The translations under genes and the position numbers were made by a program. A DNA stretch of 64,000 nucleotides from Nesterenkonia halotolerans (GTDB lineage: Bacteria > Actinomycetota > Actinomycetes > Actinomycetales > Micrococcaceae): the NCBI RefSeq assembly GCF_014874065.1, contig NZ_JADBEE010000001.1:434001-498000 (forward strand). The letters are read 5' to 3'. Numbering within the stretch: the first letter of the stretch is position 1; the number at the start of each line of letters is the position of its first letter. Shown here piece after piece: positions 55,594-59,348 of this stretch. The notes below the pieces were generated by a model, which was not told the DNA's origin, did no database searches, and was given only the letters and a program-made list of their open reading frames with translations.

Positions 55594-56406
55594 TCATCCC
55601 CAGAGCGTGGGCACAGGGTCCAGCAGTGCGGGCCCGTTGTTGCGGACGTTGCCGACACCAGGGTCCACCTCGTAGATCTCCCAGCCGCTGGCGACCTCGA
55701 GGATCTCGGTGCGCAGCTGTTCGAGCAGGACCTCAAGTTCCTCGGGACTCTTGTCCCCGGGTTGGATCCACTGGGCGGCGAACTCCGGAGTCATGGCCAG
55801 CGGAATCCGGTCGTGGAGATCAGCAAGGTCGGTGAGCACGCCGGCCTGACCGCCAGCGGCTTGGCCACCGGCGGCTTCGTCATCAGCGGTCTCCGGTGAG
55901 GGGCCGGTGAGGATGGAGCAGGAGAGGATCCAGGGGTCTGACTCACCCCGAGCCTCGGCGTCTCTGTCCTTCCACCACTCGTAGAGACCCGCGAAGACCA
56001 GCGGCGACCCGTCGGCCGCGCGAATCGCGTGGGGGCGCTTCTTCGCGCCTCCTGCCTTCCATTCGTAGTAGGCCTCGGCGGGGACGGCGCAGCGCCGAGA
56101 CTTTGCTGCGGAGCGGAAGCTCGGCTTGGAGACCACGGTCTCGGAGCGAGCATTGAAGGTGCGGGAACTGAAGGTCATGTCCTTGGCCCACACCGGGAGA
56201 AGTCCCCAGCGCGCCGGGTGGAGCTCGCGCAGCAGCTGCCCGGCGTCGTCGTAGCGTTCCACCAGGATCGGGACCGTGGAGGTCGGAGCGATGTTCCAGT
56301 TCGGGGGCAGCCCGAAGGCCGGTGGCTGAACCGGCCCCAGCCTCGCGCGGTTGAGGTCATCGGCCAGGTCACCGGTGTCTTTGGCCATGACATAGCGTCC
56401 ACACAT
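55594..56406 (-). CDS. yedK: SOS response-associated peptidase (SRAP/HMCES/YedK family)
   Basis: 270 residues. Catalytic Cys2 is at the immediate N-terminus (MCGRYVM), with Asn in FNARSET, Glu in YYEWKAG and His in LHDRIPLAM, the four residues of the fold. It crosslinks to abasic sites in single-stranded DNA, shielding them. A Gly/Ala-rich insertion with repeat AAGGQAAGGQAG near residue 185 is unusual and lies in a loop. Start is unambiguous because Cys2 must follow Met1. Confidence 0.95.
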   Translation of the reverse strand: MCGRYVMAKDTGDLADDLNRARLGPVQPPAFGLPPNWNIAPTSTVPILVERYDDAGQLLRELHPARWGLLPVWAKDMTFSSRTFNARSETVVSKPSFRSAAKSRRCAVPAEAYYEWKAGGAKKRPHAIRAADGSPLVFAGLYEWWKDRDAEARGESDPWILSCSILTGPSPETADDEAAGGQAAGGQAGVLTDLADLHDRIPLAMTPEFAAQWIQPGDKSPEELEVLLEQLRTEILEVASGWEIYEVDPGVGNVRNNGPALLDPVPTLWG

Positions 56407-56487: not shown

Positions 56488-56733
56488 CTACCCCTGAGCT
56501 GGACCGGGGCGGGGAGGCCGCAGCCGGATGGCGCATATGCCGCACACGACTGCCAGTGCTCCCAGGACTCCTGCCGTCCAGCCCAATGGGGACGAGGGCG
56601 AGGCGAAGAGGACCGGGATCAGCAGCATCAGGACGGAGGTGCTGAGCACCAGCCCCGCGAAGAAGATCAGAAACAGTCTGAGGTGTTTGACGCCCATCTT
56701 CTCGATTCTGTGGGATCGCGGCTGGTCGGACAA
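56488..56733 (-). CDS. Small two-helix membrane protein
   Basis: 81 residues from TTG 56733 (GAGGA upstream); ATG 56697 would give 69 residues. Helices LRLFLIFFAGLVLSTSVLMLLIPVLF and GWTAGVLGALAVVCGICAIRL, with a basic, proline-rich tail. No family recognised. The next feature upstream is the repeat element at 56760-56823, only 26 bases away, so the element may hold its promoter. Confidence 0.65.
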   Translation of the reverse strand: MSDQPRSHRIEKMGVKHLRLFLIFFAGLVLSTSVLMLLIPVLFASPSSPLGWTAGVLGALAVVCGICAIRLRPPRPGPAQG

Positions 56734-56759
56734 GGGGTCCTCTGGTGCCAGCGGAAGAA

Positions 56760-56823
56760 AATCGTAGAGCTGATGAAAAGTCGTAGCGCTATAGCTCGAC
56801 GATTTGCTAGAGCTCTACGATAA
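56760..56823. repeat. 64-bp four-box palindromic element, copy 1
   Basis: Ends AATCGTAGAGCT and AGCTCTACGATAA. Four 10-base boxes of consensus TCGTAGAGCT lie at 56762-56771 and 56781-56790 (direct) and at 56793-56802 and 56811-56820 (inverted), giving a forward-forward-reverse-reverse order with 19/18-base spacing. 63 of 64 bases match copy 2 at 58381-58444, in the same orientation. Confidence 0.9.
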
Positions 56824-56845
56824 ACGCGGTGGCGGGGGTTTCGAG

Positions 56846-57163
56846 TTACGCGGACCCGGGATTGCCCTCCGCAATCTCAGCAAGTGCCGCGAGGTGGGCT
56901 TCAAGGGCGCTCCTGCCCTCGTCGGTCAGCGCCACCCACGTGAGCCTCCTCGAATCCGTCCGGCTGGGCGAGCGCTCCTTGCGCACAGTCACCAAGCCCA
57001 CCTCGCTCAGCACCCTCAGATTCTTTGACAGGTGGGCATCGGTGAGCTCGAGGGTGTCGCGGATGACCGAGAACTCCAGCTCGGGCATCTTCCGCATCAG
57101 TGCACATACCCTCAGCCGGACGGGCGAATGGATGACGGGGTTGAAAACTGGTGCGACCTTCAT
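56846..57163 (-). CDS. Winged-helix transcriptional regulator (HTH_34 type)
   Basis: 105 residues from ATG 57163; the long upstream frame is a shadow of the neighbour. The domain is the short winged helix: PVIHSPVRLRVCALMRKMPELEFSVIRDTLELTDAHLSKNLRVLSEVGLVTVRKERSPSR and TWVALTDEGRSALEAHLAAL (PF13601-like). ATG overlaps the stop of the upstream membrane protein gene (ATGA), so it is the second gene of an operon. The pairing of this regulator with a membrane protein is widespread, suggesting a sensor pair. Copy 1 of the 64-bp element lies 22 bases downstream. Confidence 0.9.
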   Translation of the reverse strand: MKVAPVFNPVIHSPVRLRVCALMRKMPELEFSVIRDTLELTDAHLSKNLRVLSEVGLVTVRKERSPSRTDSRRLTWVALTDEGRSALEAHLAALAEIAEGNPGSA

Positions 57164-57663
57164 GCCCTGTGGCGCCATCCCTCCGCGATCTCCTGACGCA
57201 GAGCCACGTCGTACCGACGACCCAGAGCAACAGTGGCCATGCCGGCCACCGATGCGGGCAGGAGCAACCAGACCTCTGGGATGCCTATCAGCTTGAATGC
57301 CAGAACAGCGATGAAAGCTCCCACGAGCACCCCCACCGAGATCAGGAGCAGACGCCTGCTGCGCGGACCCGCGGGCTGGGTCGTGGCCAGGCCATGGCGT
57401 CGACTGTATGAGTGCATCACCAGCGGTATCGCAAGAATTCCGAGAACGACCAGCGTGCTGGCGGCAGGCTGCGGCAGCGCCTGCGCTCCGACGGTCAACG
57501 CCACGATCGCTCCGAGCGCTGCGTGGTACCACCACGGCGTGATCACCCGCTCCGCGAGATTCGCGCTGTCGCGATCCAGGTCCGAGAGGGCATTCAACGC
57601 GTCGGCTGGCGCGAGCGGGTCGTGGGATTCAGAGTGGCTGGGACGCACAGAATGATTTGCCAT
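57160..57663 (-). CDS. Membrane protein co-encoded with the winged-helix regulator
   Basis: 167 residues from ATG 57663; the extension to 57741 passes through the promoter. About 45 polar residues, then four hydrophobic segments (roughly WWYHAALGAIVALTVGAQAL, TLVVLGILAIPLVMH, LLLISVGVLVGAFIAVLAFKL, VWLLLPASVAGMATVAL), then a charged tail. TATAGT stands seven bases before the ATG, with TTACCC at -35 distance (17-base spacer). No enzyme motif. Proposed partner of the HTH protein. Confidence 0.85.
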   Translation of the reverse strand: MANHSVRPSHSESHDPLAPADALNALSDLDRDSANLAERVITPWWYHAALGAIVALTVGAQALPQPAASTLVVLGILAIPLVMHSYSRRHGLATTQPAGPRSRRLLLISVGVLVGAFIAVLAFKLIGIPEVWLLLPASVAGMATVALGRRYDVALRQEIAEGWRHRA

Positions 57664-57670
57664 AGTGGCA

Positions 57671-57676
57671 ACTATA
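57671..57676 (-). promoter_or_regulatory. -10 box (TATAGT) of a leaderless transcript
   Basis: TATAGT on the minus strand, seven bases, ATG 57663; TTACCC 17 bases further upstream. Confidence 0.65.
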
Positions 57677-57773
57677 CGTGTGACTTGCCGGATGGGTAAC
57701 TCATTGAAGTCCGAGGCCGCATATCTGGTCCACATGGGCACCGCTCCCCCGGCCCGGCAAGTTTGCCGAGTGC

Positions 57774-57779
57774 CATACT
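57774..57779 (+). promoter_or_regulatory. -10 box (CATACT) of a leaderless transcript
   Basis: CATACT, seven bases, ATG 57787; the same hexamer precedes the gene at 42896. Confidence 0.5.
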
Positions 57780-57786
57780 GAGCGGC

Positions 57787-58335
57787 ATGGAACTCAAGGG
57801 CATGTACTCCGCAGCTGAGTTCTGGGCCCTCATGCGAGGATTCGACGATCAGGTCCGGGAGTCATTGGCACATCGGCCCGCCTTCGCACCCGCAGACTGG
57901 TCAGGCTCACGGGCCCTGGGCGAGTGGTCATTCGGCGCTGGGAACCGGACGTTGGTGCATGGCGATCCTGAAAATGGCCGACCCTGCGTCACTGTCCTCG
58001 TGAGTTCCCGCGCTGGCCGAGAAGCAGCGCGTGAGTTGTGGGTGAACAGAAGCGGCCCGTCCAAGGACAAGGCGGAACATGCATTGCGGCGCCTGGAATT
58101 TGAAGCTCAGGCACCTGTGCAGAGACCTATCGCCATCGACGGCGCGGTCCTCGAGTTCGACGTGTGGGAGGACGAGTCACGCTGGTGGGCCGCTGTGAGC
58201 CGTCCTGGATACGGGATCGCAGTTGAGGCCCGCAATATTGACCCGGCCGGAGTGAGCCTGGTGAGCGTGGATGACCTCGAGCCCTACATCGCTGGACGCA
58301 ACCAACGCATCAAGGAGCAGCGCGGAGAGACCTAG
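57787..58335 (+). CDS. Hypothetical protein, 182 residues
   Basis: Begins MELKGMYSAAEFWALMRGFDD; no signal peptide or membrane helix. A central HALRRLEFEAQAPVQRP and the Trp-rich FDVWEDESRWWAAVSRPGYGIAVEA suggest an alpha/beta protein. No family recognised. It is transcribed divergently from the membrane-protein/HTH operon and lies between the two copies of the 64-bp repeat. Confidence 0.65.
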   Translation: MELKGMYSAAEFWALMRGFDDQVRESLAHRPAFAPADWSGSRALGEWSFGAGNRTLVHGDPENGRPCVTVLVSSRAGREAARELWVNRSGPSKDKAEHALRRLEFEAQAPVQRPIAIDGAVLEFDVWEDESRWWAAVSRPGYGIAVEARNIDPAGVSLVSVDDLEPYIAGRNQRIKEQRGET

Positions 58336-58380
58336 GCTCTGCGCCCATCACCAGATGATCAGCCGGCGCCACCGGCGAAG

Positions 58381-58444
58381 AATCGTAGAGCTGATGAAAA
58401 GTCGTAGCGCTATAGCTCGACGATTTGCTAAAGCTCTACGATAA
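58381..58444. repeat. 64-bp four-box palindromic element, copy 2
   Basis: 63/64 identical to copy 1 (the only change is A at 58431 for G at 56810), same orientation, 1621 bases apart. It lies 45 bases after the stop of the orphan gene and before the FNT gene's 3' end. Flanks on the right hold a 13-base direct repeat GGCGCCGGGTGGG. Confidence 0.9.
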
Positions 58445-58450
58445 TCACCC

Positions 58451-58479
58451 GGCGCCGGGTGGGCAGGGCGCCGGGTGGG
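58451..58479. repeat. Short tandem repeat GGCGCCGGGTGGG
   Basis: Two exact 13-base copies at 58451-58463 and 58467-58479 immediately right of copy 2 of the 64-bp element; its left flank (58363-58379) contains the related GGCGCCACCGGCG. Confidence 0.7.
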
Positions 58480-58487
58480 GAGGGCGC

Positions 58488-58506
58488 GGGAGCCAAGAGC
58501 GCTCCC
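58488..58506 (-). terminator. Weak hairpin at the 3' end of the FNT gene
   Basis: GGGAGC-CAAGAGC-GCTCCC six bases beyond the stop at 58512; no T-run. Terminator role uncertain. Confidence 0.35.
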
Positions 58507-58511
58507 CTCCC

Positions 58512-59348
58512 CTACTCGCCGCGGGCGGCGTCGGGATCTTCCGGTGAGGCGCGGCGTCGTCGTTCCACGAGCTCTTTGGTGCGGACCAGGCGAAGCGCCG
58601 TCACCAGGCCGACGCCGCCGAGGATGTTGAACAGCAGGGTGAATCCGAACCAGGTGAGCCACTCCAAGAACGGGATGTCCGCGCCGGTCTGCATCGCACC
58701 GAAGATCAGCAGCGAATCCAGGATCGAATGGAAGAGCTGGAGCCCGGCCAGCAGGAAGCCTGCGCCCACTGCCGCGATGATCCTCGCCGGATCGGAATCG
58801 GTGCCCTGCTGCATGCGCGTCAGCAGCGTGATGATCATTCCACCCAGAATCGCCAGAGACATGGTCTGCAGTGAAAAGGGTGCGTCGAGGAAATGGGCGG
58901 CGGATTCCCTCACCGTGGATTCCCATTCCGGGAAGGCCTGCATCACCAGCCACATGAAGACCCAGCCGCCGACCAGGTTCGCCACGAGCGTGCCGCCCCA
59001 GAGCTTGCACAGCTGGACGATGCTGCCTTCTCGCGAGACCACCGCGGCGATCGGCATGAGGAAGTCCTCGGTGAACAGCTCGCTGTGGGCGAGCAGGATC
59101 GCGACCAGTCCGATGCCGAAGGCCAAGCCGGCCAGCAGATGATTGTCGGTCTCGTGCAGCACAGCCAAGTAGGCCATCACACCGAGGCCGACCTCCATGC
59201 CTCCGAAGAGCCCGGTGATGAGCATCGCCCGGAAGGTCCGCTGCAGCCGCTCGGCACCCTCATGCACGGTGTTGTCGAAGGACTCCTGCAGCTCTTCTTC
59301 GACGGGAGTGTCGTTGTCGCCCAGCTCCCTGCGCCGTTCCTCGCTCAT
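58512..59348 (-). CDS. Formate/nitrite transporter-family (FNT-like) membrane protein
   Basis: 278 residues, six to seven membrane helices after a polar N-terminus of ~40. Family segments: GLFGGMEVGLGVMAYLAVL, LAFGIGLVAILLAHSELFTEDFLMP, KLWGGTLVANLVGGWVF, and GAGFLLAGLQLFHSILDSLLIFGAM. The divergent actinobacterial FNT branch is meant; transported anion is unknown. GGAG lies seven bases before ATG 59348. Two 10-base direct repeats CAGCGCCTGA (59375 and 59404) lie upstream. Confidence 0.88.
   Translation of the reverse strand: MSEERRRELGDNDTPVEEELQESFDNTVHEGAERLQRTFRAMLITGLFGGMEVGLGVMAYLAVLHETDNHLLAGLAFGIGLVAILLAHSELFTEDFLMPIAAVVSREGSIVQLCKLWGGTLVANLVGGWVFMWLVMQAFPEWESTVRESAAHFLDAPFSLQTMSLAILGGMIITLLTRMQQGTDSDPARIIAAVGAGFLLAGLQLFHSILDSLLIFGAMQTGADIPFLEWLTWFGFTLLFNILGGVGLVTALRLVRTKELVERRRRASPEDPDAARGE

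What the first reader, a model, noticed from the sequence alone, without database searches (positions are those of the whole stretch)
56760..58444. Two 63/64-identical four-box palindromic elements bracket a three-gene module
Each 64-bp element contains four copies of TCGTAGAGCT-like boxes in forward-forward-reverse-reverse order with 18-19-base spacing, so it is a nested palindrome. The two copies are direct repeats 1621 bases apart, one differing base, and the 1556-base segment between them holds an HTH_34 regulator, its membrane partner and an orphan protein. Three readings fit: a REP/MITE-like element, a four-site operator for a protein, or recombination sites bounding a movable cassette. 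Regular box spacing favours a protein that binds as two dimers; near-identity of the copies favours recent spread.
Basis: partly seen in the sequence, partly recalled or inferred. Interest (0 to 1): 0.75.

Follow-up and report, generated by a model that had tools for sequence, protein, structure and literature searches.

The report
Paired hairpin repeats bracketing swappable genes
A family of about a dozen DNA hairpin repeats sits at fixed spots, often beside housekeeping genes, in some Nesterenkonia bacteria, and pairs of them often bracket extra genes that differ between sister species, as if the repeats were joints at which gene blocks come and go.

Summary
In detail: two 64-bp four-box palindromes, one base apart, offset 1621 bp, bracket three genes. 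They belong to a dispersed family: 16 copies in this Nesterenkonia genome, 17, 13 and 11 found in three relatives, no match in the sampled genomes of 31 other genera of the family. In G000 the copies occupy 11 loci, all 11 shared with G011, 9 with G042, 8 with G021. Cores are 90% identical between sister species at the median; DNA 15-45 bp outside is 53-54% identical. At 8 of 11 loci some species has two copies, at 7 of them around genes. At A, G, J and K a relative has one copy and no cargo; at the window locus three sister species carry three different cargoes between the same flanking genes. Best reading: a conserved REP/BIME-like hairpin, probably a two-way terminator or 3'-end boundary, whose duplicate copies also serve as crossover points for gain, loss and swap of gene blocks. 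The HTH_34-operator reading is not supported. The only tyrosine recombinases shared by the nine clade genomes are two Xer-like ones; no Y1 transposase (own genome), attC core sites or target duplications were found. Homologous recombination is the likeliest engine. Function and enzyme are untested.

The parts
56760..56823 (+). Element copy 1 (EL1), four-box palindrome; lies after the 3' end of the HTH_34 gene
   Evidence: sequence, boxes, hairpin, family members
58381..58444 (+). Element copy 2 (EL2), direct repeat of EL1, 63 of 64 identical; lies between the convergent 3' ends of the orphan gene and the formate/nitrite transporter gene
56762..56771 (+). Box 1 of EL1 (TCGTAGAGCT)
56781..56790 (+). 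Box 2 of EL1 (TCGTAGCGCT)
56793..56802 (-). Box 3 of EL1 (TCGTCGAGCT on the - strand)
56811..56820 (-). Box 4 of EL1 (TCGTAGAGCT on the - strand)
56846..57178 (-). Bracketed cargo: HTH_34 winged-helix regulator, 110 aa
   Evidence: Pfam PF13601 57.6 bits
57160..57735 (-). Bracketed cargo: predicted membrane protein (my reading of its sequence), 191 aa, overlapping the HTH_34 gene; start codon uncertain
   Evidence: gene call; no Pfam match
57787..58335 (+). Bracketed cargo: orphan protein, 182 aa; relatives in the genus: G011 (74% aa) and a weak one in G003
55594..56406 (-). Left flanking gene of the locus: SRAP peptidase
   Evidence: Pfam PF02586; same flank in G011 and G042
58512..59348 (-). 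Right flanking gene of the locus: formate/nitrite transporter
   Evidence: Pfam PF01226; 97% aa in G011 and G042

Best explanation
The two elements are members of a low-copy REP/BIME-like family of four-box hairpins, found only in part of the genus Nesterenkonia among the genomes searched. Shown by comparison: the elements are inherited at fixed loci, are conserved far above their surroundings, and lie mostly just after stop codons, often between convergent genes; at several loci two copies bracket accessory genes whose presence or identity differs between species, with the change falling between the two copies. Inferred: the hairpin works as a two-way terminator or 3'-end boundary in RNA. Inferred: a duplicated copy provides about 64 bp of near-identity at which cargo is deleted or exchanged, most likely by ordinary homologous recombination between copies at the same locus (also with DNA of related strains), which would also keep the two copies of an active pair alike. 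At the window locus this has given cargoes HTH_34+membrane+orphan (here), orphan alone (G011) and MFS transporter+ArsR-like regulator (G042).
For: Dispersed family: 16 places in G000; 13 of 30 Nesterenkonia genomes at E<=1e-3; 7 of 245 family genomes at E<=1e-5, all Nesterenkonia, 1 of 32 genera (stricter filters). Conservation: 36 orthologous comparisons in G000/G011/G042, median core identity 0.902 (0.82-1.0) against medians 0.532 and 0.544 (0.41-0.93) in flanks 15-45 bp outside. Placement: of 77 mapped elements 43 convergent, 21 tandem, 13 divergent, against 38 convergent of 338 other spacers of 60 bp or more; 64 of 77 face at least one gene 3' end; 107 stop-to-element distances, median 25 bp (orthologues and pair members counted separately, so not independent). 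Stem: 66 cells changed on both sides against 39.7 (sd 5.6) in shuffles. Pairing: 5 neighbour distances under 9 kb in G000 against 0.71 expected, 4 in G042 against 0.47. One-element against two-element alleles: J, G011 against G042, flanks 96.0 and 94.5% identical, a 1.2-kb unit (element plus aldo/keto reductase gene) missing in G042; G, 8.2-kb unit with a seven-gene sugar-transport set in G042, single element in G000 and G011; A, SNase gene in G021, single element in G012 and G020; K, lipoprotein-like gene in G000, single element in G021. Swap: I, MFS+ArsR-like in G042 against orphan in G011. Polarity at J is most likely loss: the reductase is in 17 of 30 genomes, not in G042. Pair members: core differences 1 (I, G000), 4 (I, G042), 1 (A, G021), 4 (G, G042), 4 (J, G011), against medians 10-15 and minima 3-9 for different loci of one genome.
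Against: Loci C and D have pairs with diverged copies (10-15 differences), as has A in G018 (16), and C keeps the same cargo family in three species, so not every pair is active. Pairs at C, K, G (G042) and D (three of four species) are inverted, not direct; homologous recombination between inverted copies inverts rather than deletes. Elements at H, and one at K, lie between divergent genes, where a terminator makes little sense; only 34 of 77 have a T-rich right end and 21 both tracts. The simple terminator scan flagged neither window element (its loop limit is 8). Cargo also lies beside a single element: SNase in G017, lipoprotein-like genes in G017 and G020, reductase plus a MetNIQ-like set in G000 at J, 0.7 kb at E in G012. 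The HTH+membrane difference between G000 and G011 has an element on one side only. G040's three fetched elements and one of G041's four lie at none of the 11 loci. Flanks just outside elements hardly align, so alignment ends cannot place a crossover to the base.
Confidence: 0.6

Rival explanations
1. The elements are only conserved bidirectional terminators; accessory operons accumulate at such junctions and are exchanged by homologous recombination in the conserved flanking genes. The second copy came with the cargo or by local duplication and plays no part in exchange.
For: 3'-end and convergent placement and conservation; no shared tyrosine recombinase beyond two Xer-like ones; bracketed families not seen at a second locus; cargo also occurs beside single elements.
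Against: One-copy and two-copy alleles differ by one element plus cargo at A, G, J, K, and the copies of pairs at A (G021), G, I and J are near-duplicates of each other, which terminator use alone does not predict.
Confidence: 0.22
2. The elements are folded or palindromic sites of a site-specific recombination system (attC-like or Xer-like) that inserts and removes gene blocks.
For: Four boxes in nested symmetry, brackets of 0.1-8.2 kb, insertion or loss leaving one site, both relative orientations.
Against: Two tyrosine recombinases, which I read as XerC and XerD, are the only ones found in 9 of 9 clade genomes; G012, which has elements, has no other PF00589 match. 0 of 77 elements has an attC-type core heptamer (recalled motif) in both terminal 20 bp. 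No bracketed family at two loci. No element match in the plasmid or phage collections. Serine recombinases were not searched.
Confidence: 0.1
3. A MITE or REP family moved by a transposase, with pairs acting as composite transposons.
For: Repeat family with near-copies at some pairs; inverted pairs at C, D, K and G in G042.
Against: Positions shared across species (locus E: 9 of 9 clade genomes, one decayed); no Y1 transposase in the own genome; no target-duplication signal (9 of 77 with a flank match of 6 bp or more, 9.2 expected); no transposase domain in the cargo proteins given to Pfam. A parent transposase elsewhere in the genomes was not searched for otherwise.
Confidence: 0.05
4. The element is a four-site operator for a DNA-binding protein such as the bracketed HTH_34 regulator.
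For: Regular boxes; some elements lie between divergent genes (H, K).
Against: HTH_34 was found at one locus in one species among 50 proteins scanned; HTH gene and elements occur without each other (G011, G022); 43 of 77 elements lie between convergent genes. Binding by some other protein is not excluded.
Confidence: 0.03

Closest known systems
REP sequences and BIMEs (PMC2817692: abstract start seen in a search listing; the rest recalled)
   Same: Short extragenic palindromes arranged in mirrored units, often at gene 3' ends.
   Different: 11-17 copies in the richest genomes instead of over 100; positions shared between species; no REP-associated Y1 transposase in this genome; pairs bracket variable gene blocks.
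TIMEs and TIME-COMPs, composite elements bounded by two MITEs (PMC4133298, PMC13367494: abstract starts in a search listing)
   Same: Two copies of a short repeat bound a cargo of ordinary genes.
   Different: No target duplication signal; Tn3-type ends were not compared; bracketed families were seen at one locus only; one copy remains when cargo is absent.
pdif modules of Acinetobacter (PMC12907356: abstract start in a search listing; the rest recalled)
   Same: Gene modules bounded by short sites, gained and lost as blocks.
   Different: Locus-bound here; site of 64 bp with four boxes; no comparison with Xer sites was run.
Integron gene cassettes with attC sites (recalled)
   Same: Imperfect four-part palindromes bounding gene blocks.
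   Different: No integron-type integrase shared by the carriers, no attC core heptamers at the ends, no array seen; some cargo has its own regulator.
BOX and RUP repeats of pneumococcus (PMC3049150: abstract start in a search listing)
   Same: Small interspersed repeats.
   Different: Different host; no bracketed cargo exchange recalled for them; sequences not compared.

Membership tests
REP/BIME | Extragenic palindrome repeated in the genome | tested here: met
   16 places in G000, hairpin, between genes
REP/BIME | High copy number (usually more than 100 per genome) | tested here: not met
   16, 17, 13, 11 copies in the richest four genomes
REP/BIME | REP-associated Y1 transposase in the genome | tested here: not met
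   PF01797 0 matches in G000; 5 of 14 control genomes ring. Other carriers not searched
MITE / composite transposon | Target-site duplication around copies | tested here: not met
   9 of 77 against 9.2 expected
MITE / composite transposon | Parent transposase with matching ends | not tested
   No whole-genome annotation was made; no transposase domain in the cargo proteins scanned
Integron cassettes (attC) | Integron integrase | tested here: not met
   Only two tyrosine recombinases occur in 9 of 9 clade genomes, read as XerC and XerD; G012 has no other; no tree or IntI profile was run
Integron cassettes (attC) | GTTRRRY/RYYYAAC core sites at both ends (recalled motif) | tested here: not met
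   0 of 77 in both terminal 20 bp, 1 of 77 anywhere
pdif modules | XerC/XerD sites at both ends, XerCD-dependent movement | not tested
   No dif comparison run; dependence needs genetics
Intrinsic bidirectional terminator | Hairpin after stop codons of convergent genes | tested here: met
   43 of 77 convergent, median 25 bp from stop; 13 of 77 divergent do not fit
Intrinsic bidirectional terminator | A-tract before and T-tract after the stem | tested here: inconclusive
   31 A-rich left, 34 T-rich right, 21 both, of 77
Intrinsic bidirectional terminator | Transcripts end there | not testable with these tools
   needs RNA-end data
HTH_34 operator | Regulator gene linked to the sites across genomes | tested here: not met
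   HTH_34 found at one locus in one species among 50 proteins scanned; elements without it in G011

The most novel reading that the evidence does not exclude
The element is the site of an undescribed chromosomal 'socket' system: a four-box palindrome kept at about a dozen fixed sockets beside core genes, at which a host factor exchanges whole transcription units between strains without an integron integrase or transposase, the hairpin at the same time insulating the incoming genes from the core genes on both sides.
Probability: 0.12. Interest if true: 0.85.

Novelty: new variant of a known kind. Interest (0 to 1): 0.55.

Why it matters
If right, a small conserved terminator-like hairpin doubles as the joint at which accessory operons enter and leave a chromosome beside core genes. 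That would link two questions usually treated apart: why bacteria keep families of extragenic palindromes, and how integration hotspots beside core genes are set up. The clade offers a ready natural experiment: same flanking genes, one or two elements, different cargo, and one species (G022) in which the element at locus E has decayed.

Tried and rejected
HTH_34 as the binding protein: rejected on linkage (Pfam). REP transposase: none in the own genome. Rfam: only a tRNA in the window. Exact 59-mer in viral contigs: 0. Plasmid and phage collections: no match to the element consensus nor, in plasmids, to window 56600-58560. One hit of the degenerate pattern in Aquabacterium parvum (L113) is a partial match of 13.8 bits, taken as chance. 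Shared tyrosine recombinases: two types, each in 9 of 9 clade genomes; a first clustering picked wrong frames in some loci and was replaced; a few weaker PF00589 matches were not fetched. Target duplications and attC core sites: none above chance. Cargo moving between loci: 0 of 11 bracketed families (bracketed singletons and the G042 operon at G were not in that count; one flanking family, f4, is seen at D and E). Literature: the 10-mer box is in 23 papers, of which the 20 listed concern other subjects by title; Nesterenkonia with 'palindromic': 13 papers, 10 listed, none on such repeats by title and abstract start; MITE/composite/Actinobacteria terms: 12 papers, 10 listed, none on this; Micrococcaceae/REP/intergenic-repeat terms: 13, 8 listed, none on this. 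I opened no paper. Gene calls come from a home-made caller; starts and small genes are uncertain; one search was superseded.

Full report
What was checked. The window contains two 64-bp elements at 56760-56823 and 58381-58444 in the same orientation with one differing base. Each has four TCGTAGAGCT-like boxes, two forward and two reverse, with start spacings 19, 12 and 18. As + strand RNA each folds at -27.9 kcal/mol (z -4.7 and -4.8; 0 of 200 shuffles as good). Rfam has nothing for them.

A dispersed family in one genus. A search of the own genome (2.97 Mb, 3 contigs) gave 15 distinct places; a consensus-like query added one, at C2:409538, making 16. Among 38 genomes drawn as relatives, the own one included, 7 had matches, all of the same genus. 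A sequence-only profile (R1, from 52 elements) found matches at E<=1e-3 in 13 of 30 held genomes of the genus (only 150 first-look candidates per genome were scored and the list of matches was cut, so misses are possible) and at E<=1e-5 in 7 of 245 family genomes, all of this genus (stricter filters). G011 has 17 elements, G042 13, G021 11.

Fixed loci. I fetched 58 stretches around elements in ten genomes, called genes and grouped orthologues. The 16 elements of G000 fall into 11 loci, named A to K; all 11 are shared with G011, 9 with G042, 8 with G021, and A, B, E or K with G012, G017, G018 and G020. In the more distant G041 two loci coincide with A and G; one further G041 locus and the three fetched from G040 match none of the 11, and elements of G006, G001 and others in G040 were not mapped. 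Flanking genes include a class I tRNA synthetase of the I/L/M/V group and an MgtC-family protein (A), IMP dehydrogenase (B), glutamyl-tRNA reductase (E), PurD/PurC domains (F), fructose-bisphosphate aldolase (D), an SdhB-like protein (C) and a Cys/Met-metabolism enzyme (K). At locus E, between glutamyl-tRNA reductase and an OpuAC protein, 9 of 9 genomes of the closest clade have the element, decayed in G022 (23.6 bits); it was not found near this gene in 10 of 10 more distant genomes fetched, of which G019 has the same two genes convergent and next to each other.

The element itself is conserved. In 36 comparisons of orthologous elements among G000, G011 and G042 the core is 90.2% identical at the median, and stretches 15-45 bp outside 53.2 and 54.4% (single values 41-93%). 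Pairing is kept: 66 cells with changes on both sides of the stem against 39.7 (sd 5.6) in shuffles, covariation score 0.137 against 0.094, 81.7% of cells paired against 31-43% for slid partners; but 14 pairs with such a change against 11.5 (25 of 500 shuffles reach it) and 35 further pair types against 34.2 (220 of 500) are weak, and relatedness inflates these counts. RNAalifold's own covariation term is small (-0.12).

Placement. Of 77 mapped elements 43 lie between convergent genes, 21 tandem, 13 divergent; of 338 other spacers of at least 60 bp in the same stretches 38 are convergent. 64 of 77 face at least one gene 3' end, at a median 25 bp from the stop codon (members of orthologous sets are counted separately). 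This favours a 3'-end function. Against it, locus H and one element of K are divergent, and only 21 of 77 have both an A-rich left and a T-rich right end.

Pairs. In G000 five neighbour distances are under 9 kb where 0.71 are expected; in G042 four where 0.47 are expected; 0.04% and 0.09% of random placements reach this. Eight of the 11 loci (A, B, C, D, G, I, J, K) have two elements in at least one species (at G in G042 the two elements are in the overlapping stretches L124 and L125). Locus B brackets no gene, only about 100 bp. Elsewhere the cargo is ordinary: SNase (A), a 384-443-aa protein without Pfam match (C), TetR+MFS+FMN reductase+SDR in G000 and G042 with smaller or different subsets in G011 and G021 (D), a sugar-transport set with an alpha-amylase-family enzyme and a LysR regulator (G in G042), TetR+copper amine oxidase (G in G041), aldo/keto reductase (J), lipoprotein-like proteins by my reading (K).

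Gain, loss and swap. Pairwise comparison shows one-element against two-element alleles. J: G011 and G042 are 96.0 and 94.5% identical on the two sides; G011 has two elements and the reductase gene, G042 one element. The reductase is in 17 of 30 genomes but not in G042, so this was most likely a loss. G: G042 has two elements 8.2 kb apart around seven genes, G000 and G011 one; the best match of its alpha-amylase-family protein in other genomes is 60%, and 52-54% in G000 and G011, so this looks like a gain. A: G021 has two elements and SNase, G012 and G020 one element. K: G000 has two elements and a lipoprotein-like gene, G021 one element. I, the window locus: between the same SRAP and transporter genes G000 has HTH_34+membrane+orphan, G011 the orphan alone, G042 an MFS transporter and a regulator (weak HTH_20/ArsR matches below cut-off), each between two elements. 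The transporters of G011 and G042 are 97% identical to that of G000, the orphan of G011 74%. The HTH+membrane difference between G000 and G011 is bounded by an element on one side only; G022 has a 67.8%-identical HTH/membrane stretch at this locus and no element there. Cargo also occurs beside single elements: A in G017, K in G017 and G020, J in G000, so brackets are not universal.

Likeness within pairs. In 62 aligned core columns the two copies differ at 1 (I, G000), 4 (I, G042), 6 (I, G011), 1 (A, G021), 4 (G, G042), 4 (J, G011), 7 (G, G041), 5-7 (K), 8-9 (B), 10-14 (D), 12-15 (C) and 16 (A, G018) positions; elements of different loci in one genome differ at medians of 10-15 and minima of 3-9. 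Loci with varying cargo mostly have like copies and stable locus C unlike ones, but D and A in G018 do not fit this. Orientation: pairs are direct at A, B, I, J and at D in G021, inverted at C, D (three species), K and G in G042 (the near-symmetry makes some orientations uncertain).

Engine. Two tyrosine recombinases occur in 9 of 9 clade genomes (75-91% and 84-96% identical to those of G000); I read them as XerC and XerD. G012 has no other PF00589 match; the other genomes have further, unshared ones, some not fetched. No attC core heptamers at both ends, no target duplications, no Y1 transposase in G000. Of 11 bracketed families with relatives in the mapped stretches, 0 appears at a second locus. 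Homologous recombination between copies at one locus is the least demanding engine; it explains deletions between direct copies and homogenised copies, and explains inverted pairs poorly. Serine recombinases were not searched.

Verdict. A real low-copy REP/BIME-like family, not met in the paper searches, with conserved positions and a marked tie to accessory gene blocks. The function as two-way terminator or boundary and the role as crossover point are inferences from placement, conservation and comparison; neither has been shown by experiment.

Noticed in passing
L143:6530-6593 (G022, locus E): G022 belongs to the element-bearing clade (95% aa at GlutR) but gave only 3 weak matches, one a decayed element at locus E; possible loss of whatever maintains the elements.
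   Followed up: partly
L059:4831-7251 (G000, locus F): PurD (GARS domains) and PurC (SAICAR synthetase) domains lie in one uninterrupted open frame of 806 aa, a possible fusion or in-frame overlap.
   Followed up: no
L085:6853-7590 (G012, locus E): About 0.7 kb with small ORFs lies between GlutR and the element in G012 where G017 has about 20 bp; an insertion beside a single element.
   Followed up: no
L060:7745-12040 (G000, locus J): Beside the single element G000 carries the aldo/keto reductase plus a MetNIQ-like transporter set before the 805-aa Hrq1/MrfA-like helicase gene; no second element was found.
   Followed up: partly
window 56488-56733 (-): 81-aa possible membrane ORF, no Pfam match, starting about 26 bp from EL1, in a stretch mostly missing from the G011 and G042 alignments.
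   Followed up: partly
window 57787-58335 (+): The orphan protein has only 3 homologues at E<=1e-3 among about 5.8 billion proteins.
   Followed up: partly
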